NCBI GenBank assembly: GCA_918797485.1 | Contig: CAKKNE010000005.1 | Coordinates: forward strand, 4,216,001 to 4,280,000 | Length of the DNA stretch: 64,000 nt | Source: Pelagomonas calceolata | Taxonomy: Eukaryota > Sar > Pelagophyceae > Pelagomonadales > Pelagomonadaceae | Direction: 5' to 3' | Part shown: positions 410 to 57,865 of the stretch, in pieces | How positions within the stretch are numbered: the stretch's first letter is position 1 | How the letters are laid out: the number at the start of each line of letters is the position of its first letter | Position numbers and translations under genes: made by a program | The notes under the pieces: model-generated | Told to the model about the DNA's origin: nothing | The model's database searches: none | Seen by the model: the letters and a program-made list of their open reading frames with translations, nothing else

Positions 410-432
410 GCTAGTGTCTTACATACGCTAGC
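410..432 (+). promoter_or_regulatory. CTAG-palindrome promoter motif, copy 1
   Basis: GCTAG-TGTCTTACA-TACG-CTAGC. It lies 52 bp before the ATG at 484 and 107 bp before the minus-strand ATG at 303. One of twelve related copies, all in 5' flanks. Confidence 0.6.
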
Positions 433-483
433 TAGCCGAGCAAAAACAAAAACACAGCGTGAGGATGGGCGAATAGATGCGAA

Positions 484-1260
484 ATGGCGGAGATAAAGCC
501 GTCGTTCCCTTCCTCTCTGCCGCCGCAGCTCGTGATAACTTGGCTGCCGCTGCGCGATATCTCTTCTGCACTGTGCGCGTCCTCTTCCTGGCGCGGTGCT
601 AGTGAGCCGGTCTTTAAGGTCGTCGCGGAACGCAATGGTCTCACGCGCGGCACGGATTCATGGCGAGGTGGCGTGCTGAGGCACCCTACCTGGTCTCGTT
701 CCAAGCCGGCCCGGCAGCAGTACAGATGGCCTGAGTTTACCGGTCCGAGGACGGTCACTAATGAAGTCGCTGAGCGTGATTTCTACTTTGTCGCCAACAG
801 CATTCGGGTACCGCTACACAGGATGGCTCGATTTCGTGTGCAAATGAAGAAAGAGGAATTGAGGACTACGGATGGATGTGGCTTTGCCTTACTCTCGGGC
901 AGCGGCGCAATCAAGCGTGCGTATGTGTGGAACAGCAACGGCAACGATTATACAGGCATTGGCAGCCCTCTTCTTGGAAGAATCGAAACGTTCTCTTTCA
1001 AAAATAAGCGCATCAAAAGTGGCCAGACGCTGCTTGTTAGCGTCTGGAACGTACCGCCCTACCACTTCCACGCGACGCTCGAGCGCGTGGAAGAGGATGG
1101 AAGTCTCTCTGAAATAGCGACAGAACGCGACAGAGCGCGATATTTCAGCGTGGATGATAGTGATGAAGAGGATGGACCTTTCGTCCTGGCTCCATTGGTT
1201 CGTCTGTTTACAGGCTCATCCGCGACGCTGGGCTTGTATGAGCCACTGGCACATGAATAA
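484..1260 (+). CDS. F-box-like protein
   Basis: Encodes 258 residues. Residues about 10-45 read LPPQLVITWLPLRDISSA followed by CASSSW, which fits the F-box pattern (LPxEL..ILxxLPxxDL...xxVCxxW). F-box proteins recruit substrates to SCF ubiquitin ligases through Skp1. The remaining 210 residues show no repeat (no WD, LRR or Kelch). They are beta-rich in character and contain a short acidic patch (DDSDEED) near the C-terminus. There are no membrane segments or targeting peptide. The stop codon is 13 bp from the stop of the convergent GST-like gene. The family call rests only on the N-terminal motif; the substrate is unknown. Confidence 0.55.
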   Translation: MAEIKPSFPSSLPPQLVITWLPLRDISSALCASSSWRGASEPVFKVVAERNGLTRGTDSWRGGVLRHPTWSRSKPARQQYRWPEFTGPRTVTNEVAERDFYFVANSIRVPLHRMARFRVQMKKEELRTTDGCGFALLSGSGAIKRAYVWNSNGNDYTGIGSPLLGRIETFSFKNKRIKSGQTLLVSVWNVPPYHFHATLERVEEDGSLSEIATERDRARYFSVDDSDEEDGPFVLAPLVRLFTGSSATLGLYEPLAHE

Positions 1261-1272
1261 GAAATACTATTG

Positions 1273-2994: not shown

Positions 2995-3113
2995 CGCAGG
3001 CGCTGCTGGGCCCGCCAGCGCCGCATATTAAGTGCAAAGATGGCACCGGCGATGAGGACGCCGAGCGCCACGCCGACGAGGAAGATCGGTTCCGCTGGGG
3101 CCGAGAGGACCAT
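2991..3113 (-). CDS. Small one-pass membrane peptide ORF (40 aa) overlapping the GST gene start
   Basis: A 40-residue ORF beginning MVLSAPAEPIFLVGVALGVL. It has one strong hydrophobic segment (residues 9-28) and a basic tail (RRWRAQQRLR). Its TGA overlaps the ATG of the GST-like gene in the arrangement ATGA. It could be an upstream ORF, an unrecognised first exon, a genuine micropeptide, or chance in GC-rich DNA. Nothing outside the hydrophobic segment supports a family. Confidence 0.3.
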   Translation of the reverse strand: MVLSAPAEPIFLVGVALGVLIAGAIFALNMRRWRAQQRLR

Positions 3114-6994: not shown

Positions 6995-6999
6995 TGTTG

Positions 7000-7440: not shown

Positions 7441-7586
7441 TTGGTAAGGGCTGGTTTTTTTGAGCTATTTCTCGGTCTTTCGACGCAATGCGCGGCTGCA
7501 GCACTTGAAATAAGACAGCCCTGCGGGCGAATTGATGCGCAGCGACGCCAATACAGCGCGCTGGCTGCAGCTGCACCGCCTCTCAG

Positions 7587-7606
7587 AGTGTCTTACCGCC
7601 GCTAGC
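7587..7606 (+). promoter_or_regulatory. CTAG-palindrome promoter motif, copy 2 (left half-site decayed)
   Basis: AGTGTCTTACCGCCGCTAGC. It lies between the divergent DUF1805 gene (147 bp) and the EF-hand gene (48 bp before 7654). The 5' GCT of the left half-site is lost; the core and right half match. Confidence 0.5.
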
Positions 7607-7653
7607 GTGAGCGGGTTTTCGTCCAGGTATCCGTAGACCACTCGATTGGGCTG

Positions 7654-16499: not shown

Positions 16500-16923
16500 T
16501 TTCTATGAGCTTTGGCGCGTCGTCGGCGTTTTACGCGCTGCTTTTTAATGGCTGCCTTTTTGAGATGCCTTTTTTTTATGCGTACGGAGCTGTTGCTGAC
16601 ACAGGTTCGCGTCGCAACTCGTTTTTACCAGTGATGGCAATCACGTACCGCACGCGTGCCTTGGCTCACTGCAGCGCGCCGCGCAAAAGCTCCGCGCCAA
16701 AGATGGAGCTAGCGGCATGTAAGACACTAGCAAGCAACTCCGTGGAGGGTTCTCCGGAGAAGAAGCCCTCTCTTGCGACTGTTCTTCATTAGTTTTAGCC
16801 CAGCGTGCGCATCCGCCGGCCGGTTGTTGCGATGTAAGCAAGCAGGCCGCACTACGGCTCGCAGGAGAACCTCCGCCCCCCCCTACGCCGTCGACGCTAG
16901 GTGTCATAGTCTTACGCGGAAAC
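16500..16923. other. Intergenic region upstream of NAP1
   Basis: 424 bp between the NAP1 start and the guanylate kinase stop. It contains the CTAG motif at 16708-16731 and AT-richer patches near 16550-16580. No ORF was recognised. Confidence 0.4.
16708..16731 (-). promoter_or_regulatory. CTAG-palindrome promoter motif, copy 3
   Basis: Reading towards NAP1: GCTAG-TGTCTTACA-TGCCG-CTAGC, 209 bp before the ATG at 16499. Confidence 0.65.
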
Positions 16924-19565: not shown

Positions 19566-19637
19566 TTTGTTGCTGTCAAGGTTGTGGCGCTGGTGTATAT
19601 AGGGCTCCTAACCGAGTTGAGGCCCCTGCATTGGTTT

Positions 19638-19660
19638 GCTAGTGCCTTAATGCCGCTAGT
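19638..19660 (+). promoter_or_regulatory. CTAG-palindrome promoter motif, copy 4
   Basis: GCTAG-TGCCTTAATGCCG-CTAGT. Between divergent genes: 73 bp from the ATG at 19565 and 198 bp from that at 19858. Confidence 0.55.
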
Positions 19661-19857
19661 AAAAACTCGAGCGCGCATCGAGCGCTGAAAACACCCTGCG
19701 AAGGGCCGTTTTCCACAGCCTTGTGCTCCCGCGAGCCTCACACCGGTCTACACGAAGCCACAAAACCGAAAAAGCAGCCGTAGGTCAGCGCGTGACTAAA
19801 ACACAAAAAGAGCTACCAGCTCTCTGCTGCAAAAACCACCGCGACAGCGTAAAAAAG

Positions 19858-25646: not shown

Positions 25647-26224
25647 TGAAAGCGCGCCAGCCCGTGAGCCATCCGACTAGGCATCCCGCGACCGCGCCGG
25701 CTGCCGACGTGGGTACGCCAAAGTACGGCCGGAGCCCAGCCTCGAGGCCGACCGCTACCGCCGTGGCTATCGCCCACGTCAGCCCTCCCGTAAAGGCGTG
25801 AAGAACGAAATGATGCTGCGCATTTAAACCACACACGCAAACGCCGAAAACGGAGCCGACGACGCATCCCGCGACCGAAAACGGCGCGGACAACGCGGCG
25901 CCTCCAATAAAACGTATGCCGCACTCCAAAGCAGCCAAGGCGAGTGTCGAAGCCGCAACGGCCGATCCGGCCGCCGTGCCCGCCGCCCACCCCCGGGGCG
26001 AATCCCGGCTTCCCTTTTCGGTCAAGCCCACAGCCAAGCCAACGATAAACCCCGAGGACAAAACCGCGGCGAGCACGGCGAAAGGCGTTGGCACGGTGAA
26101 AGTCGTGGCGCCGCCCTTGTCGCCGCGGGCGCGCTTGACGGCGCGCCGGAGCCCGCCGGGCAGCGCCGCGCCGCCGAGGACGAACTTTTTGATCCACACG
26201 AGGTCGTCTCTTATTTGCTGGAGC
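25647..26224 (-). CDS. ABCA locus, middle exon: glycine-rich multi-pass membrane segment
   Basis: About 190 codons. It begins (after splicing) QLQQIRDDLVWIKKFVLGG and then runs through five or six hydrophobic, Gly/Ala/Val-rich helices such as FAVLAAVLSSGFIVGLAVGL and FTGGLTWAIATAVAVGLEAG. The frame closes at 25633. It is spliced to the ABCA first half with correct phase (intron 26225-26289), so it belongs to that gene. Such a segment is not part of the standard ABCA layout, in which TMD2 follows NBD1 directly. It may be an inserted membrane domain or the true C-terminus of the first-half protein. Confidence 0.6.
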
Positions 26225-26289
26225 CTGTGTGGGAATCAAGAGGTGAGTCGAGGTCACTTTGATCTGTCTGCACCGCTGGGAGCCGAAAC
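26225..26289 (-). mobile_element. Introner-type intron, 65 bp, in ABCA gene
   Basis: In sense: GTTTCGGCTCCCAGC...CGACTCACCTCTTGATTCCCACACAG. Phase-2 splicing (GTC CA|G CTC) gives VVQLQQIRDDL. GCTCCCAGC before the element and GCTCCAGC after it look like a target duplication. The 3' end matches the inverted-repeat end of the element at 45500-45697. Confidence 0.8.
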
Positions 26290-29200
26290 TGGACCACGGC
26301 CGCGACGAGCCTCCCCGCCGGCACCGGCTCGCCCGGCGCCGACGGCAGCAAGGCCCCGCCAACCAACGTCTCCGCCTCTACGGGCGCCGCCGCGCCCTCG
26401 ACCTGCTCGCCGACGGATATGAACACGTCCTCGAGCGACGTCGCCGTCACGGAAACGTCGACGAGACCCAAGCCGTCGGCCTCGGCCTCCAGCCCCTCGA
26501 AGAGAGCGGCGACGCGCGCCTTGGATGCGTGGATGGTGTACGTCGTCGTGACGTCGCGCGCGGAGTCCTCGAGGAGGGGGGCCTCGGCGCCGTCCGCCCA
26601 GTTCCGCGACGCGGAGAAGCTCGCGCCCCGGGTCGCGTTCAGGAGCGGGCTCTTAAATGATGAGGAAAAGCTTTTGGGTGTCGACCCGAGGAGCGGATTC
26701 GCGGCGTCCGTTTCGGTCGCCCGGCGGAGGTCCTCCTCGAGCTTCGAGGCCGCCGCTAGCTTGGCTTTGGGCATGTGCTGCGCAAAAACCGCTTTAAGTT
26801 GATCGCGCGCCGCGGCGGCCGTCGTCACCGCGATGTGAAGGCCGCCGGTCGACGTGCCGTCCGCTGCGTCGTCGCCCCCGCCGAAGTGCCGCTTCAGGAA
26901 AGATAGAGTGCCGCAGCACGTCACGCTCCCGGCCGCCATGATCGCCACCCGGTCCGCCAACGCTTCGGCCTCCTCCATGTGGTGCGTCGTGAGGAGCACC
27001 GACCGGTCGACGCGGACGTCGCGCAGCAGGGTCCAGACCTCGCGCCGCGCCACGGGGTCCATCCCCGCCGTCGGCTCGTCGAGGACCACGAGTCTGGACC
27101 CGCCGGTCAGCGCCGCGGCCATCATCACTTTGCGCTTCTGGCCGCCCGAGAGCTTGAGCGGAAACCCCTCGGCCATTTCCGTGAGGCGGAAGAGCTCCAG
27201 CAGGCCAGACGCCTCGTTCTCCGCTCTAGATTCCTCGACGCCCTTGAGCCGCGAGTAGAAAATGAGGTGCTCCCGGAGCGTGAGCCGAGGGAATAGCGCG
27301 TCGTGCTGCGGGCAGAAGCCGAGGAGCTGGCGGAGCCTATCCAAACCATCCGCGTCGGCTAAGGGGCCGAGCGTGCGGATCCCGAAGAAACTTGCGCTGC
27401 CGCCGTCGGGCGCCATTGCTCCAGTCATCATCGACATGGTGGTCGTCTTGCCCGCGCCGTTGTGACCCAGCAGGCAGAAAATCTCCGAGTCGCGGATCGC
27501 GAACGTCGCGTCGGATACGGCGACCTTCTTCCCGAAGACCTTCCGGAGGCCTCTTACCTGGACCGGCGCGTCGCTATCTTTATCATTCTCGAACCACTCG
27601 TCGTGGTCCACGAGCGGCGCCTTCTCCACGACCTCGTCCGGCGGCGGCGGTCGCCAGTACGCCTTCCGGAGGCAAAAGAGCAGGTCCTTGCCCTTGCCCC
27701 GCGCCGCCGACGTGGACACCTGGATCACGTACCACAGGACGGCCGCCCACAACACCACGGACACCATCAGCATGCAGTAGACCCCGGCCGTCCACGCGGA
27801 CTCGGGCCGCCAGCCCCGATCCTCAGTCTTCTCGTACCAGAAGGGCCAGACGTCCTCGCACATGAGGTGCTCGTCGGCGCAGGGCGCCGCCGTCAGCGAC
27901 TTCCTCGCCAGATGCTGCTCGAAGGCCTCGCGCCGCGGCCTCGGGGCTTTTTCCCAGCACTCTTTTCTACACTTCTCGCACGGGTAGCGCTCCCCCACAA
28001 AACCGTCGTCGACGAGCCAGCACCGCCAGCCCGCTCGTTTTTTCGTCGGGCTGAACGAGTCCACCAACAAATCGTAGGCGAACTGCGGCAGGAGCGCGCT
28101 TGCGAAGTGCGCGCGCGGCCGCGCCCGCAAGCGCCAGTTCGTTTTGTATCTCCGTTTCCCAACGTTCCAGGTCCGGAGCGGGGCCCAGAGCAAGTAGCAC
28201 CCGTGCAGGGCCGCGTGCAACAGGGGCGGGAGCCCCGCCGCGGCGATCTGCGACCGAAGGAGGCACGTGACCACCACGAAGGTCTGGAGGACGAGCGCCA
28301 GCAGAAAGAGCCAGTGGAGGGCGAAGAGCTCGAGGAACGCGGCGACCTCGAAACTCTTGCCGGCGCGCCGGAAGAGGCCCGGCGCGGCGCCCGCGGCGAT
28401 CGCGACGGCGACGCCGCCGCCGACGGCGACGCCCTCGACCAAAAAGGATGCGAGCCAGTAGGCCGCGTCGGCGCCGCCCGCCGCGCGCGTCGCCTCGCGC
28501 GTGCCTTGCGCAACGTCCCCCACCAACGCCGAGGCGACGACCTGGACCCACGGCACGAAGAACAACTGGAAGATGACGAGCTCGAAGTCGCCGTGGTTCG
28601 TGTCGAAGGTCGTCCGCTTGCGGGTCTTCGTGACGGCCGTCGGCGCGCTCGTCGCGCTCGTATCGCTTGCAACGGTGCTCCTCGCTAGCCGGTTCTCTTC
28701 CCTGGCGTTGTACAGTAACCACAGGACGCCGACGCCGAGGAGCGGGACGAATACTTGCTTGGCCAGCGCGGCGGTCGTGCGCTTTTTTATAATCCACGCC
28801 TTGCGCGCGAGGAGCGCGGTGCGTTCCGTGAGCGACGGCGGCTCGGCGGCGTGTTTCGGCGCGACGGCGCCGTCGCCCGCGGGCGCCGCCTCCGCGAGCG
28901 AGAAGAGCTGGCCCCTTTGGACGCCCTCCGGCACCTTGACCTTGATGCCATCGGGGCGGGTCACGATCGTGCCCGGCGGGCCCGGCGCCACGACCCAGGG
29001 GGCCGTCTGCTCCGTCCCGTCCTCCGCGGTGTAGACGGCCGCGGGCGGCCGCTTGACCAGGCATCGCCGGAAGGAGTCGCACAAGCAGTAGCAGTAGCGC
29101 GCGAGACAGGACCGCGCGGCCGCCGCTCCTTTCCTGAAGGGCCACGCGACGGCCGCGGCGCCGGCCGAAATTTTTCCCACGCACGGCGAGAGCTTCTCCA

Positions 29201-32200
29201 GAATTGGCGCGACGTGGCGTCCGAACCAGGAGCGCCGCTCGCAGAACTTCTCGTAGCGCGCGCGGACCTGCTCGCGGAACACGATGAGCAGCCCGCCGAA
29301 GAACAGGAAGAAAAAGAGCGCCGCGGCGCCCGCCCCTAATTGCCCGCTGAGCGTCACCGCGAGCACTACGGGAACGACCGTGACAAAAAGTAGCGCGGGC
29401 CGGCGCAGACAGAGCTCCAGACTCGCGAAGAACCAGCCGCCGCAGCACCAGAAGAGGCCCCACCGCGTCAGCTTCCCGTCCGCCGCCCAGTTCCGGATTT
29501 TCTGGAGCCGGGCGTAGCCCCAGCACGTCGGCTGCGATATGCAGCAGGCCCAGGCGACGCCCGCCGCCCAGAGACCCACGAGCGCCAGGATCGCCAGGAC
29601 CTGGCGCCAGGTCCACCACGTCGGGTCCGCGTCCCAGGCGATGGTCGCGTCGAAGCCGCAGACGTCCGGGATCGCCTCGCCGCCGCCCGCGTCGGGCCAC
29701 CGCTTCACCGCGTCCTTGAGCTTCTCGAAGAGGACCGGGTCGTGGCCGAGCTCGTCGCACGTCTTCCCGCAGGTCCCGAGGCAGCCGCTGTAGAACTCTC
29801 GCTCCGCGTCCTGCGCGCACGCGTCGGCCGCCGCCGCCGTCGGCCGCGCCTCGAGCCCGCTCCAGCGCCGCGGCGCGCGGGAAGAGGCCCAGAAGTGCGT
29901 CCACGGGTGCTCGACGTACGTCTCCGGTTGCTCATGTTCATGATGCTTTTCGTGATGCCGGTAGTACGGATCGCCCAGGGGTTCCACGCGGAAATCGGCG
30001 CCGTGCCACGGCGTCCGGTAGGGGGCCTCGCCGCTGATACTCGCAGATTCAGGAGCTCTGTCTGCGCAGCCGGCGCAAGTGTTTCTGCAGCCGGCGCAGC
30101 CGGCCTCGTCCCAGCGCTTCTTCTCCCGGAGCTGCGCGTGGAAGAAATCGCCGTCGGCGGTCACGACGCCGCAGGCCCGGATCCGCATCCGCTCGCCCTC
30201 CCACCGATTCTTCGCGGTGTGCGGCCAGGGCCGCCGACCCGGCAGGTCCGTACGCCACCACGACCGGTGGCAGGGGCTTCGGCCGTACCAGCCGAACCAG
30301 TAGTCCAGGAACGACCACCAGCGCCACTTGTGGGAGCGCACGTAGTACAGCGTCTGCGTGTCGGGGTCGCACCGCAGGTCGTCGCAGGCGTACGGCGCGC
30401 GCCGCGGCGAGAACCCGCAGGGCCGGTCGCGGACGTGCTCTATCCCCGCGGCGCGCCCGGTCCAGCCCGCGGTCCCCCCTTTTCCGTACAGCTCCTCGAT
30501 TTTGTGGGCCGGCACCGCGTCGTAGGCCGCGCCGAAGTACTTGAGGAGGACGTCGCACCGCCGCAGCCCGGTCTCGTGGAAGCAGACGGGGAGCGGCGCC
30601 ACGCAACCGGCCGGCGCCGTCGCGTTCGTGCAGCAGGCGCCGACGCCCGGCACGTAGTCCATGCCCGCGAGCCGGTGCCCGTCGGCGCAGTACCGCGCCG
30701 CGGCCGGCGGGCCGAAGGCGCGGAGCGCCACATCGGCTACATTGACGCCTTGGATGGGCGGTGCGACGCGCGAGCAGTCGTCGTTATAGTTCAGCCCAAG
30801 GTCGCCCGGGTCGCGGTCGACGACGTCCTCGAGGGCGGCGATCCGCGGCCCGCCGGGCTTGAACGAGCGGCAGGCGTCCGCGTTGCAGTCGCCGCGCCGC
30901 GTCGGCTTCGTGAACGGATCGGTTTTCCGTATCTCCCAATACTGGCCGCTCATGTCGTAGTGCGACCAGAAAGTAACTATTCTGGCGCGGCACTCGGTCT
31001 CGCGGAACCACTCGCCCTCGTCCCAGCCGTGGCGCGTCCCGTCGTCGACGATGTAGACCTTGCTCGTCGTGTTGGGGCAGTGGTCCGAAGAGTCGTCGCA
31101 GCAAAGGTAATGGAACTCGATGCCACCCGCTGCCCAGTGTGGGACAGGGAACTTCCCCTCGTTCGCGTGGGCCTCCCAGCACACCGCGCCCGCCCGGTCC
31201 ACTTCGGTGGCGGTCAACGCCTCCGCGTCGCCCTTGCAGCAGGTGAAGACGCAGGGCGCGTCCCCCGGCACGACCGTGTAGCCGTCCTCGCACACGGGGA
31301 CCTCGTTCGGCCCCGCGCAGCACTGGCCCCGGGGCGCTCGCGCGATCCCGTCCCAACAATTTTCGGATTGCATGGTCCAGGGCCGCTGCTCCGTGCATTC
31401 CGTGTGGTGGTCGCCGTGTTCGGTCCGTCGCGCCTTGCGCACCGAGCACGCGAGGTCGTCGACGCCGGGCCCGCAGGACCCGTCGTCGACGCCGCGGCGA
31501 ACGCGCGCGCACTCGCAGTCGGCGCTGAAGTCGCAGCAGTCGCCGCAGTCGTGGTACCCGACCGGGCACCACCCTTCGGGCTGGGACACGTTGTCGTGGT
31601 ACGCGAGGCTGCATATTTCCCAACCGCACACGAATGGGTAAGTACCATAGCGGCTGTCGTCGTTCCATCGTCCTGAGTCGGAGATCACGATGTAGGGCTC
31701 GTCGCCCCCCCCGTTGTTGGGCTCTCCGAATTCCCAGTTCTCGTAATCCCACGCCGTACCGTCCGACCAAGTCCACGTGCCCTCTTGGGCCGCATCGGAG
31801 CCCCCGATCCAGCATCCACCGTGACAAAGCGCCGCAACTGCCGCATTCTCGCTGGAGCTGTGGATTGACGCGAGGTCGTGATAGTGCGCGCGGCAGTACG
31901 CGCGCGCATCGTCAAAGCTCTTCGCTTGATCGACGTGCACGAAGGAGCCGCTGGTTGTAACACGTACGTTCTCCCCCTCGTGTATTGGTGCAAGCGTCGC
32001 CGTCGGCGTTGCTGTTGTCGGCGCCGGAGTCGGCGCGGGCGTCGCCGTCGGTGCTGCCGTTGTCGGCGCAGGAGTGGGCACGGGCTTGGCCCCGTTCCGC
32101 GAGCACAGGTACGACGACCGGCAGTTACGGCACCAGTAGTCAAAGAACTCAAAGCCCTCGTTTTCCGTCCAGCCGTGCGTGCCAAGCCAGCAGCCGGCTT

Positions 32201-34895
32201 CGTAGTCGCCGTTTGGCTCGCTGTAGCTCGACAACCGCATGAACCACGGATCCCCGGCAACGCTTTTCCAGCCGACGCCGCCGTACGTGGCCATAGCGTC
32301 GCTGTTCATCGCGTAGCCCTGGCACGAACCGCAGCCTCTCTCGTCGCGGTAAATGCCAACGAGTGGGTCATACCAGCCCGTCGCCTCGACGACGGCGAGC
32401 GCGTGCGCGTAGCTGCGCGGGACCCAGATGTCGAAGCCTGCCGGGCAGCTGTTCTCGTCCGTGTGGCGGCACGTATATTGGCCGTCCTCGACGAGCAGGA
32501 CGTCGTAGATCTCGCCGTCAGCCTCGACGCAGTAGCCCGTATGTCCTTCGTACTTAAATCTACCGGCCGAAGAGCAGTCCGACGGCCATGGCGCCGTCGG
32601 CGCGGAGGTAGGCGCTTCCGACCACGAGCAGATCTCCACAGAGTCCCAGGCGGCCTCGCAACCGTCGCAGTCCGCGCCGACGTAGGCATAGAGCGGTCCG
32701 GACGCGCCAATAGTGTCCGAGAGACTGAGGTCGCCACTGACTCCACTGACTTCCCCACAGCACTCGTACCTCTCCTCCTCGGGGCACCAATAATTCTGCC
32801 CGCCCGAGCGGGGCACGAAGCCCGCTACGCGACACCCGCGGGGCTCGTCCCAATGTTCCGACGCGCAACAGTCATCTCCGTAGTCGGTGCAGATGTCGTT
32901 TCGGCAGTCGATCGTCACCGTCTCCGCCTCGGTAGGGTCCCGAAACGTCACCGTCGACTCGTCGATCGTGATCTCGATGTCGTAGGTCTGCCGCGACGGA
33001 CTATAGGTGGACACGACGCCGGTCTGGCCGTAGATGGCCCGGTAATCGCAGTTCCACACGAACGTGACAAAGCCGGGGCGGTTGGACCACGGCGCGCCCG
33101 AATCAGTGCTTTGGGTGGAGACCTTTATGTAGTGGTCCGAACAATCGTCAGTCTTGTCGAGCGACCCGCTGATCATCAGCGGGGCCTCGATGATTGTATT
33201 CGCCGTGCGAATGTGCGCGCCATTGTTCGCGTTCTTGCAGACCAACACCCCGGCGCCGCTGAGCGCGCACTCGCCGTCGCCGCCGGCGGAAGACGTCCAC
33301 TGCGGGTCGAGGCTGGTCCCTTCGAAGTCGTCCGACACGCAGGTCGTGGTCGTCGGTGCAGCCGGCGGGGTCGGCCTGGGCGAGGGTGCGGGCGTGGGCC
33401 GCGGCTCCGCCAGTCGCGCCGTGCAACTACTATCGCAGGCGCAGTCCGCGTCGCGGTCGCAGCAATCGCCGCACTCGTAGTATCCTTCGGGGCACCGGGG
33501 CGTGCGCCATTCATGCGCGTAGGCGTCGCCACCGAGCCCGTCGCAGGAGCAGTCCGCGTCCTGGTCGCAGCAGTTGGCGCACGTGTAGTAGCCCGCGAGG
33601 CAGCCGTCGAAGTCCGTCGTTGGCTCGACGGCGCCCGGTTCCGTCGCGCAGCACTGGTACACCGCGTCCGGGTCCTCGCACGCCCCGTCGCGCGACACGC
33701 CGCCCGACCGGACGGCGTAGCCCGCGAGGCTGCACCCCGGCCGCTCGGGGAACGGCGCGCAGCAGTCCCACCCGTAGTCGGTGCAGATGTCGCTCCGGCA
33801 CGTCTCGTTCGCCGCCGGGCGGTTTCCGGCGGCGTCCGGGCACCCGAACTTGTACAATTGCCAGTCGTCCAGCGCCGCGATTCTCGCGGCGCAATGATCC
33901 GTGACGCAGCGACACGTGATGTCGGGACTCCAGTAGAAGTACTCGCCGTCGCACCCGGTCCCGGCGAGTGCGCGCACGGCGGCGGCGCACTCCTTGAGGC
34001 CCATGCGGGACCGCGCGCCGTCGTAATAGGACCAGGGATGGTCGATGATCTCGTACGCGCCCTCGCTGATTTGTCCGAGGCGGGCGGTGCGCGCGCAGGC
34101 GCGGTCGAAGACCGGGCCGACGTAGCTGGGCGACGAACAGTTCCCGCTGCCCGCGCACGTGATTATGACTCCCTGCGTGTCGTAGAGGTTCGAGGCCGGG
34201 AGGGCCTCGGGGGCGTGGCGCGCGTCGCACGTGAGGTAGCCCAGGGTCCCGTCGTGGCTATAGACCTCCGGCTCGAGGCGGCCGAGCGGCTCGAACACGC
34301 CGCTGCAATGTTCGTCCTTCGCGCACCTCTCCAGCAAAAACGGGACGAAGTCGTCCATGTACGGATCGTTTGCCGCGAGGGGCGTGCAGCGACGGTCAAA
34401 GGTGTAGGCGTACGGCCAGCGACAAGGAAGCGACAGCTGCCGGCTGCACTTCGAGTTGTCGCACACCGTCGGTGGCTCGGGCAGCTGCGGGATCCACGGC
34501 GCGTAGTCGCCGCAGCAGTACAAGAAGGAGTGGCCGCAGCTCGCCGCATCTGGGTACCGCACCGGATCATGATGGGTGTGGCAGGGATGCGGGTCGGGCG
34601 CGTGCTGGACGCTGTGCAGACTGCAGAGTGGTCCGTTCGCCCATTTCCCGTACTGAAGCCACTCGTCGCTGCCGTCCGACACGGGCACCCACGTGTCCGA
34701 GCTGTAAACGCCGCCATCGAACGGCGCACCGGTCGGACAGAGCTCTTCGGACGAGCAGAGGCCCTGGCCGCGGGACTCGCACTCCTCGCGCGCGGCGTTC
34801 CACGACACGGATGGCCGTTCACCGGCGGGGCTCGGTCGAGCGGCACTACTGACGAGCGCCGCGGCGACGACGACGCGACCGAGCCGCATCGTCAC
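26290..34895 (-). CDS. ABCA-type transporter, first half, with giant Cys-rich C-type-lectin ectodomain
   Basis: A single exon of about 2869 codons. A signal peptide (MTMRLGRVVVAAALVSSA) leads into a secreted-type region of roughly 1700 residues. It is rich in Cys, Trp and Tyr and has repeated short modules (CPEGYYECGDCCDRDADC, CLAGYYTCANCCDQDADC; SDICTDYGWDCCA, NDICTDYGDDCCA). Near its middle is a textbook C-type lectin domain: FDDARAYCRAHYHDLASIHS, CWIGGSD, GTWTWSDGT, WEFGEPNNGGG and the closing Cys. Membrane helices follow (TWRQVLAILALVGLWAAGVA; ALLFVTVVPVVLAVTL). Then come a linker with a VPEGVQRGQLF motif, the ABCA membrane domain from KAWIIKKRTTAALAKQ, and NBD1 with GHNGAGKTTT, LSGGQKRK, LVVLDEPTAGMD and TTHHMEEAEAL. 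Predicted lipid or sterol translocator with an external carbohydrate-binding part. Confidence 0.88.
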
Positions 34896-35074
34896 CGGCG
34901 CTGCTCACTCCGCTTGTGCTTGGTTGGCACGCTGCCCCCGTCCTACGAGTCGCAGTGCGCTTGATGGTCCTTGCTCCGCTTGCATGGGCACGGCACGCTG
35001 CTCACCAATCGCACTGCCTGCCAGTTGGCACGGCCGGCTGCCCCGTAATACAAAAAGCAGCGCTCTGAATAATA

Positions 35075-35099
35075 GCTAGCGGCCTTGTAAGACACTAGC
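35075..35099 (-). promoter_or_regulatory. CTAG-palindrome promoter motif, copy 5
   Basis: Reading towards the ABCA gene: GCTAG-TGTCTTACA-AGGCCG-CTAGC. 180 bp before 34895 and 190 bp before the divergent ATG at 35289. A TATA-like TATAAG at 35149 lies on the helicase side. Confidence 0.65.
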
Positions 35100-35288
35100 A
35101 GTAAATGCAACAAGCGGCGCGCCTCATTTGAAGCCGAACCTGTGCACATATAAGCGCACGTGCGCGAGGGGGGTCCAATTTATCGCAAACACTGCGGCTG
35201 CGCCCTGTGTGTTGCGGCGGTGTGCCCAATAGCAGCCAGGCGCCGCCCCCCCCCGATCGACAGCAGCTGCGAGCCACACGCCGCATTG

Positions 35289-40896: not shown

Positions 40897-41233
40897 GTTG
40901 GGCAGCCCTAGTCGTGGTGCGGAGGCATGGCAGGTCCCGGCAGCCTAATTGATGATCACATTTACGAGCGATACCCAGCCGTACGTCTAGTTCACGCGTC
41001 CGCGCACCGCTCCTTGCTAGTATCTTACAGCCGCTAGCTAAATCGAGCGCGTTGCACGCCCGGGCAGCCCGGGCAGCCGAACTAGTGGCCAGCTCGCACG
41101 CCGGGACGGCCCAAAGGCTGCCAGCGACCCACAGACGCCGCCGCGGCGCGGCTCTCCACGCCGCCGCCGCAACACCCAATTATACCTCTGATACGTCGAG
41201 CGGGCAGCCGCCGCGCGCGCGTCAGAAGCAGCC
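40897..41233. other. Divergent promoter region, acyltransferase / MORN gene
   Basis: 337 bp. Contains the CTAG motif at 41016-41038; otherwise no ORF or repeat was recognised. Confidence 0.45.
41016..41038 (+). promoter_or_regulatory. CTAG-palindrome promoter motif, copy 6
   Basis: GCTAG-TATCTTACAGCCG-CTAGC. 120 bp from the ATG at 40896 and 196 bp from 41234. Confidence 0.6.
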
Positions 41234-44293: not shown

Positions 44294-44493
44294 CTTGCTG
44301 ATGCTGGTAGTCGTTACGCCGGCCGGCGGTGCCGTATTTTATGCTTGGTGCTAGCTGAAAATGCCGCAAAGTGAAGGGTGTTGTGAGCTCGAATTTTCCT
44401 TCGTGTGTTTTTCGAGGCGTGGCACGGTTCTTGCGGTCCTATACATGCCTCATAACGACGTGGCTGCGAGGCGAAGGACGCGTGCTGGAGCTA

Positions 44494-44516
44494 GCTAGCG
44501 GATGTAAGGCACTAGC
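44494..44516 (-). promoter_or_regulatory. CTAG-palindrome promoter motif, copy 7
   Basis: Reading towards the Erv1-like gene: GCTAG-TGCCTTACATCCG-CTAGC. 201 bp from the ATG at 44293 and 109 bp from the ATG at 44625. Confidence 0.6.
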
Positions 44517-44624
44517 AAGCTAATTTTTTGTGGACGGCAGCTTAAAAATCGTGTAAATATAGTGTTATGGCAGAGAGTGGTTAGAATTTTGATCATTGAT
44601 CGGCGCTGGAGCGCTGCGAGATCG

Positions 44625-48795: not shown

Positions 48796-48796
48796 T

Positions 48797-49693: not shown

Positions 49694-50163
49694 TGCGATT
49701 TTGTTATCGTGTGCGGTTTGTGCAGCCGCGTTTGCCAGCAATGCTTGCTTGCTTCGCCGCTGTCCTGCTGCGCGACGCGCTGGGAGGCGCTGCTGCTCGC
49801 AGTGGGTTTTTGGCTTTTTGCGCTTCTTTTGCCAACACTATTCTGTCGTACGTTTTCGTGAGGTTAATAATCGATGCGTGCGCGCACGCGTACGCGCGTA
49901 ATAGCTTCACGCAGCCAGCAAGACGACCGCGCAGCTGTACGCTAGTGTCTTACATGCCGCTAGCTGACCCACCACTCGACCAAAAAGCCGCGTAGAGCTG
50001 CATCACCGCGGTCGCTGCGCATCGAACACGGGCAGCACAGCTGCCACATCGCGTGGTCGCAGCGCCAGCCGTTCCGCGCATTCCTGCGGCATCAAAAAAC
50101 GCAGCATAGCAGCCTGCCAACATTATTGCCCTCACGACCGCAAAGGTCGCCGGCGAGCGCAGC
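49694..50163. other. Divergent promoter region, TPR gene / FAAL gene
   Basis: 470 bp, containing the CTAG motif at 49941-49964. No RNA gene or repeat was recognised otherwise. Confidence 0.45.
49941..49964 (+). promoter_or_regulatory. CTAG-palindrome promoter motif, copy 8
   Basis: GCTAG-TGTCTTACA-TGCCG-CTAGC, identical in core and spacer to copy 3. 248 bp from 49693 and 200 bp from 50164. Confidence 0.65.
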
Positions 50164-52332
50164 ATGGCTGAGGACGCTGAAACCGTCAGCGAGCTCCTCG
50201 CCGCGTGGGCCGCGACAAAACCGGACGCGCCTCTGTTTTCGTGGCTCGAGGACAAGAACCAGAGCGTGAAGGCGACGCTCTCATTAACTTATGGTGACGT
50301 CGAGAAGGCCGCCGCACGGACGGCACACAAGCTGCGACACAAGGAAGGTGTGAAAGAAGGCGCCCGCTGCCTCCTGGTCTACGAGCCGGGCCTGGCGTAT
50401 ATAGTTGCGTTCCTGGGGGTGTCGCGGGCTGGAGGAATACCAGTACCGGTCTTCCCCCCGGAACCAAGGAGAAGGAAGACGAGCGAGTTGCATGCCTTCT
50501 GCCAAATTGCCGAGAGTTGCGGCGCGGCCTTCGCTCTTACATCTTCTTTATATGATTTCGCGAAGAAGACAACTGCTTTATCGAAGTTGGTCGCGGGCGG
50601 CGACGCGACGTGGCCGTCGTCCCTCAAGTGGGTCGTATGTGATATTGACAAGTCTACGCCTGGCTTGGCAGCGGCGCCCGCGTCGCAGGAAGTGGCCTTC
50701 CTGCAGTTCACGTCGGGATCCACGAGCGCTCCGAAGGGCGTCGTGATCACGCATTCTTCCCTAAAGCACAACCTCGACCTCATCGTCGACGACCTGAAAG
50801 CTGATGAGACAACAATCAACGTCAGCTGGCTGCCCCAGTACCACGACATGGGTTTGATAGGAAGCTACCTGGGCACGCTGCGGTGCGGCGGCCGCGGCTA
50901 CTACGCGTCCCCGCTCAAATTTGTGGCTCGGCCCGCGTCGTGGTTGGAAGCTATATCGCAGGTCCGGGGCACGCACACGCAGGCGCCGAATTTTGCGTAT
51001 GCCCTCGTGACGCGGAAGCCGCCCTCGCAAACCTTGGATCTGTCCTGCCTTAAACATGCGATCAACGCGGCCGAGCCCGTCGACGCGGCGGTAATCGACG
51101 CCTTCGAGCGCTTCTTTGGCGAGAAGCATGCACTGAGGAAAGGTGTCGTCTTCCCGACCTACGGCCTCGCGGAGAGCACGGTTTTGGTGTGTGGCAATGG
51201 TGTTATGAGGTGCAGGATAGATGCGGACGCGCTGCGGGAGCGGCGCTGCGTTTCTTCTGAAGAGGGCGTCGCGCTCGTGGGGTGCGGCGCGCCGCGTTCC
51301 GATCGCGGCGTCTCCATCAAGATCGTGCGGATTGATGACGACGATCAAGGCACAGCGACTCTGGGTGAGAATGAGGTCGGCGAGATCTGGGTCCGATCGC
51401 CAAGCGTGGCCCGGGGCTACTGGGGCGTGGAAGATCCTAGTTTCGGCGCGTCCATCGACGGTGAGAGCGGCTTCCTGCGGACGGGCGACGAGGGCTTCTT
51501 TCGCGAGGGTGAGTTGTATGTGTGCGGCCGCCGCAAGGACCTTATCATACTAAGAGGCAAGAACCACTACCCCCAGGATTTAGAGCGGTGCGCCGAGCGG
51601 GCCGCGCCTCAATTAAAACCCGGCTGCGTCGCCGCGTTCTCCGTCGATGACAAAGGCGAGGAACGACTCGTGGTGATCGGCGAGGTCCGCGACGACGCTA
51701 GTACAAGAAAGAAGCGTTCCCAGGACGGCGCCTACGCGGCGCTTTGTGAACAAGTCGCTTCCAGTATAGCACACGAGCACGGGGCTTCGGTGGACACGCT
51801 GTGCATTGTCGCCCCGCGGACGGTCCCGAAGACGACGTCGGGCAAGATCGCTAGGCGTCGGTGTCGCGACGCGTTCCTCGCTGACAAGCTGGACGTGGCG
51901 TATCGAAGTTCTGATGGTCCTACGACGGCGGTCGTCGCGGAGCAGCCCACTTCGAGTTATGAGCACAGTGGAGTGGTTGCGGACGTCGCGCGCGCGCTCG
52001 GGAAGGTATCTAGAAGGGACGCATCATCATTGCCGTCGAAGCGACCCCTGGCGGATTTGGGTGTCGACTCGCTCGACCTGGCTCAATTCAAGGGCGTCCT
52101 GGAGGGCGAGTTTGGATTACAAGGGCTGCCGGACGATTTGTTATTTCGGGACGACTGCACGTTAGCAGCTCTTGGTGCTTTAGTTGAACGTGGCGGGGCG
52201 TTCACGGAGGAGGCCTACGCGCGCTGTGTGCGCGACTTGGACGTCGAGGGCGGCGGCGCGAAGAAGAAGGGGGACTGGGTCGTGGAGAACTGCGCGTGTT
52301 GTCTGGTTTGCTGCCCGGGTAAGTTAAGGTAG
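50164..52332 (+). CDS. Fatty-acyl-AMP ligase fused to an acyl carrier protein domain (FAAL-ACP)
   Basis: Encodes 722 residues as drawn. The adenylation domain has P-loop FTSGSTSAPKGVV (about residue 182), WLPQYHDMGLIG (typical of FAALs), PTYGLAESTVLV (about 330), GEIWVRSPSVARGYW, TGDEGF and GRRKDLIILRGKNHYPQDLE. FAALs activate fatty acids as acyl-adenylates and pass them to a carrier. An ACP follows at about 600-690, with the phosphopantetheine serine in DLGVDSLDLAQ. The last residues are ENCACCLVCCPG, a Cys cluster that could be S-acylated to anchor the protein. A strong 5' splice site (GTAAGT, 52319) lies just before the apparent stop. Splicing to 52441 would end the protein GSF instead of GKLR (stop 52449-52451). 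Confidence 0.9.
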   Translation: MAEDAETVSELLAAWAATKPDAPLFSWLEDKNQSVKATLSLTYGDVEKAAARTAHKLRHKEGVKEGARCLLVYEPGLAYIVAFLGVSRAGGIPVPVFPPEPRRRKTSELHAFCQIAESCGAAFALTSSLYDFAKKTTALSKLVAGGDATWPSSLKWVVCDIDKSTPGLAAAPASQEVAFLQFTSGSTSAPKGVVITHSSLKHNLDLIVDDLKADETTINVSWLPQYHDMGLIGSYLGTLRCGGRGYYASPLKFVARPASWLEAISQVRGTHTQAPNFAYALVTRKPPSQTLDLSCLKHAINAAEPVDAAVIDAFERFFGEKHALRKGVVFPTYGLAESTVLVCGNGVMRCRIDADALRERRCVSSEEGVALVGCGAPRSDRGVSIKIVRIDDDDQGTATLGENEVGEIWVRSPSVARGYWGVEDPSFGASIDGESGFLRTGDEGFFREGELYVCGRRKDLIILRGKNHYPQDLERCAERAAPQLKPGCVAAFSVDDKGEERLVVIGEVRDDASTRKKRSQDGAYAALCEQVASSIAHEHGASVDTLCIVAPRTVPKTTSGKIARRRCRDAFLADKLDVAYRSSDGPTTAVVAEQPTSSYEHSGVVADVARALGKVSRRDASSLPSKRPLADLGVDSLDLAQFKGVLEGEFGLQGLPDDLLFRDDCTLAALGALVERGGAFTEEAYARCVRDLDVEGGGAKKKGDWVVENCACCLVCCPGKLR

Positions 52333-52440: not shown

Positions 52441-52459
52441 GTTCTTTTTAGGGCTCGGC

Positions 52460-53158: not shown

Positions 53159-53226
53159 GGGAGCGCCGGTTTGAGCTACTATGAGCCCACCGCGGCCAGA
53201 AATCTGAGCTTCTATAACTCCGTCTT

Positions 53227-53248
53227 TCTAGCGGCCTAAGACACTAGC
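53227..53248 (-). promoter_or_regulatory. CTAG-palindrome promoter motif, copy 9
   Basis: Towards the NTF2-like gene: GCTAG-TGTCTTAGGCCG-CTAGA; spacer shortened. 69 bp before the ATG at 53158. Confidence 0.5.
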
Positions 53249-53380
53249 GTTCGCGGCCAGTTTCACCGAGGTGGACACGGACGAAGGTCCATGCGTCCCC
53301 CGCCTTCAATCACCGTATCATTTTACATTCTAGTTACACAATTTCGCGCGGCCGAACGAATAACGTTCCGTATCGTCTGT

Positions 53381-54284: not shown

Positions 54285-54468
54285 CTGGGCGCGTCTGAAG
54301 GTTCAAAAGGCGCCCAAGGGCCCGAGGAGACGCCTCGGGAACAAGCCGGCACGGCACGCGGCTCGACGTGCCTGCGCCGAGTCGCCGACGTGAGTGGCCT
54401 CGTCTGAAATCAGCAACTCTCACGCTTGTACGGAGATTACCTTACACAAACCAAAAATTAAAACAACA

Positions 54469-55116: not shown

Positions 55117-55229
55117 GCTGCCAGGCGCAAGCAGGGCTCGGCCACAATCCGTATATGTGCTATGGCTGAGAGATGCACGAGCAGCGCTACGCAAACCAAA
55201 GCTACTCGGCGGCGGCCGGCCAGGAGTGA

Positions 55230-55253
55230 GCTAGCGGTCTGTAAGACACTAGC
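55230..55253 (-). promoter_or_regulatory. CTAG-palindrome promoter motif, copy 10
   Basis: Towards the gene at 55116: GCTAG-TGTCTTACA-GACCG-CTAGC. 114 bp before the ATG. Confidence 0.65.
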
Positions 55254-55511
55254 AAGCCTGAGACATGTCTCGGAGGCGTCTGCGCGAGGGGCGACCGTAA
55301 CGTTCAATACCGGTAGAGTGGCATCCACAATGTGCAGTCAATTTGTTTTTGTTTTTTTACACGCGGGGGTTCTTAAAGCGGGAGCCGCGGGGGCCCTAGG
55401 GATTGGGATGGGGACCGCTCGGAATCCAGGGACGGGTCCGGGTGCAGGTTGGATTGAGTTCCCGGAGGACGGTGAGCACTGGAGCACGATCTGGACAGGT
55501 GGGGCGCGACT

Positions 55512-55886
55512 TCAGGGAAAGACACACTTGCCGCAGCAAGCGGGGGGGACCGCAGGTGAGAAGCCGCCGCCAGCCTCTTCGCAGCCGGAGCGTGTCGACA
55601 GGCTATCACACGACTTATCCTCGTCGGCGAACACCCACCCGGTGATTTCTTGACAAGTGAAGACCCCAACACATGGAACAACCCCATCCTGTTCGCCACA
55701 TTGAGCTTCCTCCACGAAAACCCCCACACACTTAGTTTCAGTGCCACCAGATTCATCTTCGACACTCCAACAAACTTCTCTTGGGCCGGCCGCGCAGGGG
55801 CAGGGCTGAGTGACGCCAAGCGCCTCCGCCGTGTCCGGCGCCGCGGCGAACGCGATGGCGACGAGGAGGGAGACAGTGCGCGCCAT
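55512..55886 (-). CDS. Small secreted cysteine-rich protein
   Basis: Encodes 124 residues. A clear signal peptide (MARTVSLLVAIAFAAAPDTAEA) is followed by about 100 residues with fourteen cysteines. Their spacing includes CPCAAGPREVCW, KCVGVFVEEAQCG, CVGVFTCQ and a C-terminal PPACCGKC. KCVGVFVEEAQCGEQ and PCVGVFTCQ look like two short repeats. No domain was recognised; it resembles secreted disulfide-rich effectors or cell-wall proteins. There are no TM segments after the signal peptide. Confidence 0.6.
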   Translation of the reverse strand: MARTVSLLVAIAFAAAPDTAEALGVTQPCPCAAGPREVCWSVEDESGGTETKCVGVFVEEAQCGEQDGVVPCVGVFTCQEITGWVFADEDKSCDSLSTRSGCEEAGGGFSPAVPPACCGKCVFP

Positions 55887-56115
55887 GTTGCCGAAGTGAA
55901 GTGGATGCCTGCGGCGTCGGAAATATCGCTTCCCCGGGGTCGCGCGGTGCTCGTGGCCACCAGAGCTCTGATTGGATATGAGCTAAGTCGAGGTTTCTCG
56001 CTCGAGCGGCGCGGCGCCCCGTGGTAGCGTTAAAAATACAAACGTAGGCCCCGGTTTCACGATCATCTACGCCGCCGCGGGCCTCGTAATCGTGGTTTTT
56101 TACGCCTGCTTGCTT

Positions 56116-56138
56116 GCTAGTGTTACAGGCCCTCTAGC
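56116..56138 (+). promoter_or_regulatory. CTAG-palindrome promoter motif, copy 11 (divergent core)
   Basis: GCTAG-TGTTACAGGCCCT-CTAGC. 230 bp upstream of the minus-strand ATG at 55886; the core is rearranged compared with the others. Confidence 0.4.
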
Positions 56139-56180
56139 GCTTAGCTGAAAGCCATGCGCACGGACTACAACAAAGACAAG

Positions 56181-57674
56181 TTACCGCCGCCACCGAAACC
56201 CAAAAGCAATCGCCTCGAGCGACGCCGTCAAGGTCGCCTTAAAGTTCCGCCACGTGAGCGCGAGCGGCAGCAGCGGGTCGTCGTCGGCGCCGTCGTCCAG
56301 GCCGGCGAGCTGATCCGCTGCGGCGGCCGCCGCCGCCGCGTCGCCGCGCGTCCGCGCCCGGAACTTCGCCGCGTCGCGCACCAGCGCCGCTGCGACCAAC
56401 GCGAAGCCGAACCCTAGAATTTTGGGCGCCACTTCCACGACCAAGGCGCACGTCGCACAGGCGAGGGCCGCCGTCGCCGACGCGAGCGGCACGCGCGCGC
56501 AGGCCTTGCGCGCCTGCTTCGAGTACGCGTCGGCCACCGCCGCCGTGCGGCCCTTGGCGGCCACGGACTCGGTTGCCCGCGCGATGCCGTACTCCGCCGC
56601 CGTCAGGTAGTAGGCGGCCTGCGCCGCGGCCACGGCGGAGGCCACTGGGGCAGCTAAAGCAAAGCTGCCTGAATACGTCATGAACGCCGCCGCGAAGGGC
56701 GCCGGTAATATGGACCGGGCGAACCCGACCCAGAGCGCGGTGTCCGCCTTCGCCTCGTCCTGGGACAGCTCCACGACGGAGCGCCAGGTGTAGCCCACGT
56801 TTTCACTCGTAGCAAAGCGCCTCCTCCCGAGCGCTTGCGCCTTGTCGCACCGCCTCCGCGAATCCTGCTCCGCCACCACCGCAACAGACGCCGCCAGGAT
56901 GGACACCGCGGGGCAGACCAATGAGACAAGTGTGCGACTCCGCACGGCCGCGGATCGATCGACGAACAACGGCTGCGTCGCCGGCACCTCCATCGTCGGC
57001 GTGTTGTATTTCACGAGCGGCGCCCAGCGTGGCGCTTCGTCGTAATACTCGGGGATCTGCTCGACGGCCGTCGCGGGCTCGACGAGTTCTAGTAGAGCGG
57101 GCGCCGACGAGCTGAGAGCTGTCGCCGTCGCTCCCAGTACGACACATACGGGCAGCACCGACTTGACGCGCTCGGCGCCGGCCAGGATCTCCTCGGCCTC
57201 GGCCGCGGCGCGCACGGCGACAGCTGAGACCTCGTGCGCGTTCGCCGCGGCGCGCAGCGCGCCCCACTCCTTGTAGCCGCCGATCGCCGCCGTGGCCGCG
57301 GCGCCGGCCGCGACCGCCGCGGCCGGCGCCGCCGCCGTGAGCGTCGCGCCGGCCGCGACGGCCGTCGCCGCGCCCAGCGCGACCTTCTCTCTCCTTTCGA
57401 GCGCGCCTCGCCGGTCGCTGCTGAAGTCGACGCGGTCCATGTCCCGCGTGACGCGCGCGACGGCGCGGTCGATGGCCTGGGCCTCTCGATCTTTTCGCTT
57501 GACGCTCTTCGCCTCTTCGACGGCCGCTCGGAGCGACTGCGGCGCGTCACTGGCGGCACTCGCGGTCGCTCTCCGCCGCACCGAGGTCCTGGCCACCGCG
57601 CGGTGCGGCCCGGGCGGTGTCGTGAGAGCTGAAGCGCTGACTACCAGGAGCAGTAGGGCATGCCACGCCACCAT
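56181..57674 (-). CDS. Plastid-targeted multi-pass membrane protein of unknown function
   Basis: From ATG 57674 (MVAWHALLLLVVSASALTTP) 497 residues; the frame opens at 57794, but those 40 residues lack signal character. A signal peptide and an Arg/Thr/Ser transit-like region are followed by a charged helical segment (VEEAKSVKRKDREAQAIDRA) and about seven Ala-rich hydrophobic helices. It has an inverted or tandem symmetry: each membrane block is followed by an Ala-rich helix with conserved Tyr/Arg (ALAAPVASAVAAAQAAYYLT; VLGATATALSSSAPALLELV). No transporter signature was recognised. The gene is divergent from the CRAL-TRIO gene. Confidence 0.55.
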   Translation of the reverse strand: MVAWHALLLLVVSASALTTPPGPHRAVARTSVRRRATASAASDAPQSLRAAVEEAKSVKRKDREAQAIDRAVARVTRDMDRVDFSSDRRGALERREKVALGAATAVAAGATLTAAAPAAAVAAGAAATAAIGGYKEWGALRAAANAHEVSAVAVRAAAEAEEILAGAERVKSVLPVCVVLGATATALSSSAPALLELVEPATAVEQIPEYYDEAPRWAPLVKYNTPTMEVPATQPLFVDRSAAVRSRTLVSLVCPAVSILAASVAVVAEQDSRRRCDKAQALGRRRFATSENVGYTWRSVVELSQDEAKADTALWVGFARSILPAPFAAAFMTYSGSFALAAPVASAVAAAQAAYYLTAAEYGIARATESVAAKGRTAAVADAYSKQARKACARVPLASATAALACATCALVVEVAPKILGFGFALVAAALVRDAAKFRARTRGDAAAAAAAADQLAGLDDGADDDPLLPLALTWRNFKATLTASLEAIAFGFRWRR

Positions 57675-57841
57675 CTTCACCCTGTCGTGTTGCCACCCCT
57701 GTCGTGTTGGCCCCGCAGGGCTATTCGATATACCAGTCTTCGCCGGAGGTCCTTCTGCTGGCTCTGAACTCTCGTTTGAACCACGTCTCACCACCGCTGG
57801 ACCACTACGTAGCGTGTACGGCGGCTCGAGCCAGACTGCTT

Positions 57842-57865
57842 GCTAGCGTCGCGTAACACACTAGC
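57842..57865. promoter_or_regulatory. CTAG-palindrome promoter motif, copy 12
   Basis: TTGCTAGCGTCGCGTAACAC followed by ACTAGCAAG, the most symmetric copy (GCTTGCTAG ... CTAGCAAGC). 168 bp from 57674 and 183 bp from 58048, between divergent genes. Confidence 0.55.

What the first reader, a model, noticed from the sequence alone, without database searches (positions are those of the whole stretch)
410..57865. Twelve copies of a CTAG-ended palindromic motif, one per 5' intergenic region
The motif GCTAG-TGTCTTACA-(0-3)-CCG-CTAGC occurs at 410, 7587, 16708, 19638, 35075, 41016, 44494, 49941, 53227, 55230, 56116 and 57842, in either orientation. Each copy is 48-248 bp upstream of at least one start codon. 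Eight lie between divergent genes. I saw none inside coding sequence or in convergent gaps (6.99, 22.5, 38.4, 43.0, 52.4, 61.0 kb). The half-sites GCTAG/CTAGC are strictly kept while the spacer varies by 1-3 bases, as expected for a dimeric factor or a core promoter element. I know of no described element of this form.
Basis: partly seen in the sequence, partly recalled or inferred. Interest (0 to 1): 0.85.

Follow-up and report, generated by a model that had tools for sequence, protein, structure and literature searches.

The report
Genome-wide two-way promoter motif in alga
A 22-letter DNA sign sits upstream of about half the genes sampled in this tiny ocean alga, usually once between two genes that run in opposite directions, and most likely marks the shared switch region where a still unknown protein opens the DNA for reading.

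Summary
All 12 copies exist; the genome (32.4 Mb; by size and contig number Pelagomonas calceolata) holds 719 strict copies (control 0) and 4,152 pairs CTAGTG-N6..20-CGCTAG (control 72). In 264 kb with gene calls made without the motif, 55 sites lie in divergent gaps (37), tandem gaps (15), one convergent gap, and coding sequence (2, weak). 36 of 55 divergent and 14 of 46 tandem gaps have it, 0 of 29 intron-like ones. It sits mostly 150-250 bp from the coding edge, near the middle of divergent gaps, almost always single. Its pieces lead a de novo search for promoter words. Flanks are largely unrelated (not a repeat end), the ends do not covary (not a hairpin), strand is random (not a typical core element), and recognition is asymmetric (CTAGCG..CGCTAG is at background). 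Best reading: the binding site of an unknown, abundant protein that serves both genes of a divergent pair, working like yeast general regulatory factors. The protein, transcription starts and chromatin are untested; other pelagophytes could not be checked; about half of the promoter-type gaps lack the element.

The parts
407..433 (+). motif copy, divergent gap 316-608
   Evidence: profile score 40.8, gap class
7581..7607 (+). motif copy with degraded left half (CAGAG), divergent gap
   Evidence: score 22.4
16707..16734 (-). motif copy, tandem gap, 208 bp upstream of start at 16499 (-)
   Evidence: score 42.0
19635..19661 (+). motif copy, divergent gap (fatty-acid hydroxylase gene on the left)
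   Evidence: score 30.8
35074..35102 (-). motif copy, divergent gap, 185 and 187 bp from the two starts
   Evidence: score 35.8
41013..41039 (+). motif copy, divergent gap (acyltransferase / MORN gene)
   Evidence: score 38.2
44493..44519 (-). motif copy, divergent gap (Erv1/Alr gene / gene without Pfam match)
   Evidence: score 38.1
49938..49965 (+). motif copy, divergent gap (gene without Pfam match / AMP-binding gene)
   Evidence: score 36.7
53226..53251 (-). motif copy, tandem gap, 68 bp upstream of DUF2358 gene start
   Evidence: score 22.0
55229..55256 (-). motif copy, tandem gap, 113 bp upstream of start at 55116 (-)
   Evidence: score 42.0
56113..56139 (+). motif copy, tandem gap, about 227 bp upstream of ORF 55512-55886 (-)
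   Evidence: score 21.6
57841..57868 (-). motif copy, divergent gap, 167 and 180 bp from the two starts
   Evidence: score 34.5

Best explanation
It is an upstream, orientation-independent promoter element of consensus CTTGCTAGTGTSTTACANNMCGCTAGCT, read as an asymmetric 22-bp site (CTAGTG-10-CGCTAG) by one abundant sequence-specific DNA-binding protein (or complex) that serves a large part of the genome. The site sits near the middle of the gap between divergent genes, so one bound protein serves both promoters. The likeliest mode of action is like that of yeast general regulatory factors (Abf1, Reb1, Rap1): the protein binds, with neighbouring A/T tracts helps keep a short stretch clear of nucleosomes, and transcription starts on either side, perhaps 80-140 bp away. 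Shown here: the site, its abundance, placement, singleness, asymmetry, lack of strand bias, largely unrelated flanks. Inferred: the protein, its effect on chromatin, the position of transcription starts.
For: Genome-wide abundance against reversed-pattern controls. 52 sites in promoter-type gaps (1.23 per kb) against 3 elsewhere (0.014 per kb); 50 of 101 promoter-type gaps against 1 of 84 others; among gaps >=200 bp, 49 of 88 against 1 of 21 (summed). Further sites: of 24 motif-selected loci outside the training stretches, 12 are divergent, 11 tandem, 1 undetermined. Distance from motif centre to coding edge is 150-250 bp in 52 of 89 arms. Only 1 of 36 divergent gaps has two copies, 6.1 expected if promoters acquired copies independently, P(<=1)=0.002. 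Strand in tandem gaps: 16 of 26 with the gene, p=0.33. TTTT within 30 bp outward in 22 of 89 promoter arms against 1-8 in later bins. Outward A/T skew low in the first 80 bp, higher further out. Pieces of the motif lead the promoter-enriched 6-, 8- and 10-mers.
Against: No binding, expression, chromatin or transcription-start data; gene calls are from a simple coding model without transcript evidence and missed at least one likely short gene. 51 of 101 promoter-type gaps lack the element, so it is not obligatory. The skew signal is ambiguous: the 100-120 bp bin is flat (0.014) and arms beyond about 140 bp increasingly contain coding sequence. A-runs, unlike T-runs, are only weakly concentrated at the motif (AAAA 18 of 89, then 5-13). 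Conservation in another pelagophyte could not be tested.
Confidence: 0.7

Rival explanations
1. A core promoter element (initiator or TATA equivalent) bound by the basal machinery at the start site.
For: Very common and promoter-specific; TATA boxes are nearly absent (3 sense and 3 antisense TATAAA in 156 upstream sequences).
Against: No strand bias, one copy for two divergent genes, mostly 150-250 bp from coding edges; composition asymmetry appears only some way outward (weak).
Confidence: 0.1
2. A target of an ordinary regulator of one condition or pathway (a large regulon), not a general promoter factor.
For: 51 of 101 promoter-type gaps lack it; the site is long and specific.
Against: Neighbouring genes in the window have unrelated Pfam domains; 86 of 156 predicted starts border a gap with a copy (counted).
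Confidence: 0.12
3. The end of a dispersed repeat, miniature transposon or introner element.
For: Short inverted ends; intron lengths in the species peak near those of introner elements (PMC9481584, passages); a separate repeated string CTAGTGAGTTTTGCGCCACTAG exists; 17 of 110 flank queries have more than one match in the 264 kb.
Against: Conservation falls to background within a few bases of the ends on both sides; among 110 flanks only 7 pairs from different gaps match at E<=0.01, six of them 17-45 bp and one 75 bp; 0 of 29 intron-like gaps hold it.
Confidence: 0.02
4. A hairpin acting in the 5' untranslated RNA or as extruded DNA.
For: The ends could pair (GCTAGTG with CGCTAGC).
Against: Outer pair in 55 sites: 29 G-C, 11 C-C, 7 G-G, 8 others, and 0 compensated C-G; no significant preference for the coding strand.
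Confidence: 0.02
5. A chromosome-organising or replication-origin site that happens to sit in divergent gaps.
For: Preference for divergent gaps; about one per 4.8 kb in the sample; nearly always single.
Against: Also in tandem gaps, at a fairly steady distance from the downstream start (median 188 bp) and variable distance from the upstream stop; very dense for origins (general knowledge).
Confidence: 0.04

Closest known systems
Yeast general regulatory factor sites (Abf1, Reb1, Rap1)
   Same: Frequent, promoter-specific, orientation-tolerant, upstream of the start, near A/T tracts; Abf1 sites are also bipartite (site properties recalled; for PMC9481977, PMC11069190, PMC12541377 only the search listing with the start of the abstract was seen).
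   Different: No sequence likeness known to me; this site is longer (about 27 bits) with CTAG at both ends; the protein is unknown.
Vertebrate ZNF143/THAP11 promoter site
   Same: Long asymmetric site, enriched in bidirectional promoters (recalled).
   Different: Different sequence (recalled); no homologue was sought here.
Toxoplasma upstream GAGACG-type elements
   Same: Orientation-independent elements upstream of starts in a protist (recalled).
   Different: Short, often repeated, unrelated sequence (recalled).
Oomycete core promoter elements (initiator, FPR, DPEP) of Phytophthora infestans
   Same: Genome-wide stramenopile promoter elements (only title and start of the abstract of PMC3599244 seen in a listing; element names recalled).
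   Different: Those are start-site elements (recalled); this one is upstream and strand-independent.

Membership tests
General regulatory factor site | Promoter-specific and frequent | tested here: met
   50 of 101 promoter-type gaps against 1 of 84 others
General regulatory factor site | Placed in either orientation, upstream of the start | tested here: met
   Placement only: 16 of 26 same strand, p=0.33; 52 of 89 arms 150-250 bp from coding edge; activity not tested
General regulatory factor site | Near poly(dA:dT) tracts | tested here: met
   TTTT in 22 of 89 promoter arms within 30 bp against 1-8 further out; AAAA only 18 against 5-13
General regulatory factor site | Bound by an abundant factor that makes a nucleosome-depleted region | not testable with these tools
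   no chromatin or binding data
Core promoter element | Fixed strand relative to transcription | tested here: not met
   16 of 26 in tandem gaps, p=0.33; one copy between two divergent genes
Core promoter element | Fixed short distance to the start site | tested here: inconclusive
   start sites only guessed from base skew
Symmetric homodimer site | Equal half-sites accepted in all combinations | tested here: not met
   T/C pair 4152 v 72 control; C/C 58 v 95; T/T 155 v 15
Dispersed repeat or introner end | Shared sequence continues beyond the motif on one side | tested here: not met
   information falls to background outside the motif in 55 sites; few flank matches
RNA or DNA hairpin | Compensatory changes in the stem | tested here: not met
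   outer pair: 0 compensated C-G of 55, 18 same-base clashes; other stem positions vary too little to tell
ZNF143-type site | Bound by a ZNF143 homologue | not tested
   no protein search was made

The most novel reading that the evidence does not exclude
Promoters of pelagophytes are organised by a single lineage-specific master protein that reads a 22-bp asymmetric code with two alternative cores (TCTTACANNM at spacing 10, TGTCGATA at spacing 8), placed once per bidirectional promoter and serving about half of all genes.
Probability: 0.35. Interest if true: 0.8.

Novelty: new variant of a known kind. Interest (0 to 1): 0.62.

Why it matters
[quoted passage not shown] One easily recognised sign at about half of the sampled promoters would help to place promoters and gene boundaries from sequence alone, gives a direct bait for finding the protein, and, if the reading holds, adds an independent case of general-factor-like bidirectional promoter organisation far from fungi and animals.

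Tried and rejected
Hairpin, dispersed-repeat end, symmetric dimer site and strand-fixed core element were each tested and not supported. A search for a second fixed-position promoter element gave only GGCAGCC/GGCTGCC words, enriched in promoters but without a fixed place or strand; a word count with the motif masked gave nothing above z=3.5. Viral contigs hold no exact match to CTAGTGTSTTACAN{0,3}MCGCTAG (that answer says records of the window's own genome may be left out). A prokaryote-genome scan was not run because I estimated that chance alone would give several matches. Literature: one search found 98 papers holding at least one of three strings and listed 20, all with 0 occurrences of the 14-mer; since papers with more of the terms are listed first and a paper with the 14-mer would hold all three, none of the 98 should have it; none was opened. 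Searches gave listings only. In the main texts of PMC13284251 and PMC9481584 'motif' and 'promoter' have 0 occurrences. PMC5917014 (passages) describes a different, viral motif; PMC11267843 (passages) holds CTAG only inside an HSF site TTCTAGAA. The first strand tally of the extra loci (3 same, 8 opposite) wrongly assumed that loci were turned to the motif; corrected (7 same, 4 opposite).

Full report
WHAT IS THERE. The window lies at contig 5, 4,216,001-4,280,000, of an assembly of 32,445,274 bases in 8 contigs. All 12 reported copies exist. A profile built from the window and a 200-kb stretch of contig 1 finds 55 sites with score >=18 and none at that score in the same sequences reversed. 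The profile was built at a looser threshold (77 sites, 19 control hits), so its information content of 17.6 + 9.6 bits is if anything too low.

ABUNDANCE. Strict pattern GCTAGTGTCTTACA-N0..4-CCGCTAG: 719 in the genome, 0 control. CTAGTGTSTTACA: 1,864, 0 control; CTAGTGTSTTACA-N0..5-CGCTAG: 1,668, 0 control. A pattern that names only the ends, CTAGTG-N6..20-CGCTAG: 4,152, control 72. With spacing exactly 10: 2,154, control 9; exactly 8: 524, control 3. Of the first 100 listed end-only matches (plus strand, contig 1), 67 have TCTTAC, TGTTAC or CCTTAC next to the left end and 55 have spacing 10. Scaling 55 sites per 264 kb gives roughly 6,700 in the genome (extrapolation from two stretches). Counts include the duplicated chromosome ends described in that paper.

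PLACEMENT. Genes were called with a coding model trained on long ORFs of the same two stretches, without use of the motif. The 55 sites fall in divergent (37), tandem (15) and convergent (1) gaps and in coding sequence (2, scores 18.7 and 18.1). By gap: 36 of 55 divergent, 14 of 46 tandem, 1 of 55 convergent, 0 of 29 intron-like. Density is 1.23 per kb in promoter-type gaps against 0.014 per kb elsewhere, p=8.5e-38; per gap 50 of 101 against 1 of 84, p=1.6e-15. Convergent gaps are short, so I also compared gaps of at least 200 bp: 49 of 88 against 1 of 21 (summed). Thirty strict loci were fetched; 6 lie inside the 200-kb stretch and were dropped; of the other 24, 12 are divergent, 11 tandem, 1 undetermined, 0 convergent or coding. 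The distance from motif centre to coding edge is 150-250 bp in 52 of 89 arms and sites sit near the middle of divergent gaps. In tandem gaps the distance to the downstream start is fairly steady (median 188 bp, range 105-357 bp except one of 1,042 bp, the window copy at 56113, which has a likely missed gene 227 bp away), while distance to the upstream stop varies from 27 to 966 bp. Only one of 36 divergent gaps has two copies (31 bp apart, opposite strands), where 6.1 would be expected if the two promoters acquired copies independently (P(<=1)=0.002); another close pair, 37 bp apart, appears at C1:575888 and 575925. So one copy appears to serve two genes.

WHAT KIND OF SIGNAL. Conservation stops at the ends: CTT before and T after, then close to background. 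Among the 110 flanks, 7 pairs from different gaps match at E<=0.01, six of 17-45 bp and one of 75 bp between two sites about 3 kb apart; 17 of 110 flanks have more than one match in the 264 kb. That pattern does not fit a repeat end. The ends could pair as a stem, but the outer position shows 11 C-C and 7 G-G clashes and no compensated C-G among 55 sites, which speaks against a hairpin. Strand relative to the gene is not biased in tandem gaps: 9 of 15 in the sample and 7 of 11 in the extra loci, together 16 of 26, p=0.33. The two ends are alike but not equal: T in the left end and C in the right, in 50 of 55 sites. Ends of C/C type are at background (58, control 95); T/T type is about ten-fold over its control (155, control 15) but 27 times rarer than the mixed form, and 9 of the 50 T/T sites listed are one different repeated string. 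So recognition is asymmetric. Composition read outward from the motif has little A/T skew in the first 80 bp (0.00-0.09), 0.17 at 80-100, 0.01 at 100-120, and 0.13-0.23 from 120 bp on, in 124 arms; near against far differs at p=4e-7 in 89 arms. I read this as a hint that transcribed leader begins some 80-140 bp away, but arms beyond about 140 bp increasingly contain coding sequence, so the hint is weak. TTTT clusters in the first 30 bp (22 of 89 arms, then 1-8); AAAA does so only weakly (18, then 5-13). A free search for promoter-enriched words puts pieces of the motif on top for 6-, 8- and 10-mers.

MECHANISM. The simplest account is a long asymmetric binding site for an abundant protein that opens the shared region between divergent genes, like yeast general regulatory factors. 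Steps shown: site, abundance, placement, singleness, asymmetry. Steps inferred: protein, nucleosome effect, start sites. Genes beside the copies in the window have unrelated Pfam domains (fatty-acid hydroxylase, EF-hand, SMUBP-2-like helicase, MORN, Erv1/Alr, AMP-binding, CRAL-TRIO), which argues against a narrow regulon. In the sample 86 of 156 predicted starts border a gap with a copy (counted).

VARIANT. A second form, CTAGTGTGTCGATACGCTAG, has the same ends at spacing 8: 43 exact copies, 0 control, and 90 of CTAGTGTGTCNNTNCRCTAG, 0 control, all on contigs 1-6. Looser relatives (CTAGTGTGTC-type) occur in divergent gaps of the sample, but no exact copy lies in the sequence I held, and the placement of exact copies could not be checked because no more letters were allowed.

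LIMITS. No transcript, chromatin or binding data; gene calls are simple and the profile and calls come from the same two stretches; other pelagophyte genomes were not available. Absence from print is limited to the open-access searches named.

Noticed in passing
G000 contigs 1-6, e.g. C1:2297720, C2:3750274: A second motif form CTAGTGTGTCGATACGCTAG with the same ends at spacing 8 has 43 exact copies; at least three copies (capped list) share a further tail ATCACTAG.
   Followed up: partly
G000:C1 1196660, 2231511, 2722326, 2884445, 2886250, 2905263, 2905618, 3004753; C2 1724570: A different repeated string CTAGTGAGTTTTGCGCCACTAG (same ends, spacing 10; 9 copies in a capped list), several around C1:2.7-3.0 Mb; the copy at C1:1196660 lies close to the inverted repeat CCCCGTACCGTTAACGGTACGGGG.
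   Followed up: partly
   Followed up: no
promoter-type gaps of window and C1:1.0-1.2 Mb: GGCTGCCC/GGGCAGCC words are enriched in promoters (46 against 4.0 expected) but have no fixed place or strand.
   Followed up: partly
window 26211-34889 (-): A 2,892-aa ORF combines an ABC transporter domain with a C-type lectin domain.
   Followed up: no
window 55512-55886 (-): 124-aa ORF with a signal-like start and many cysteines, perhaps a secreted protein missed by my gene caller.
   Followed up: no
window 51225-51316: ARAGORN reports a tRNA-Arg inside the AMP-binding gene ORF 50164-52332; probably spurious.
   Followed up: no
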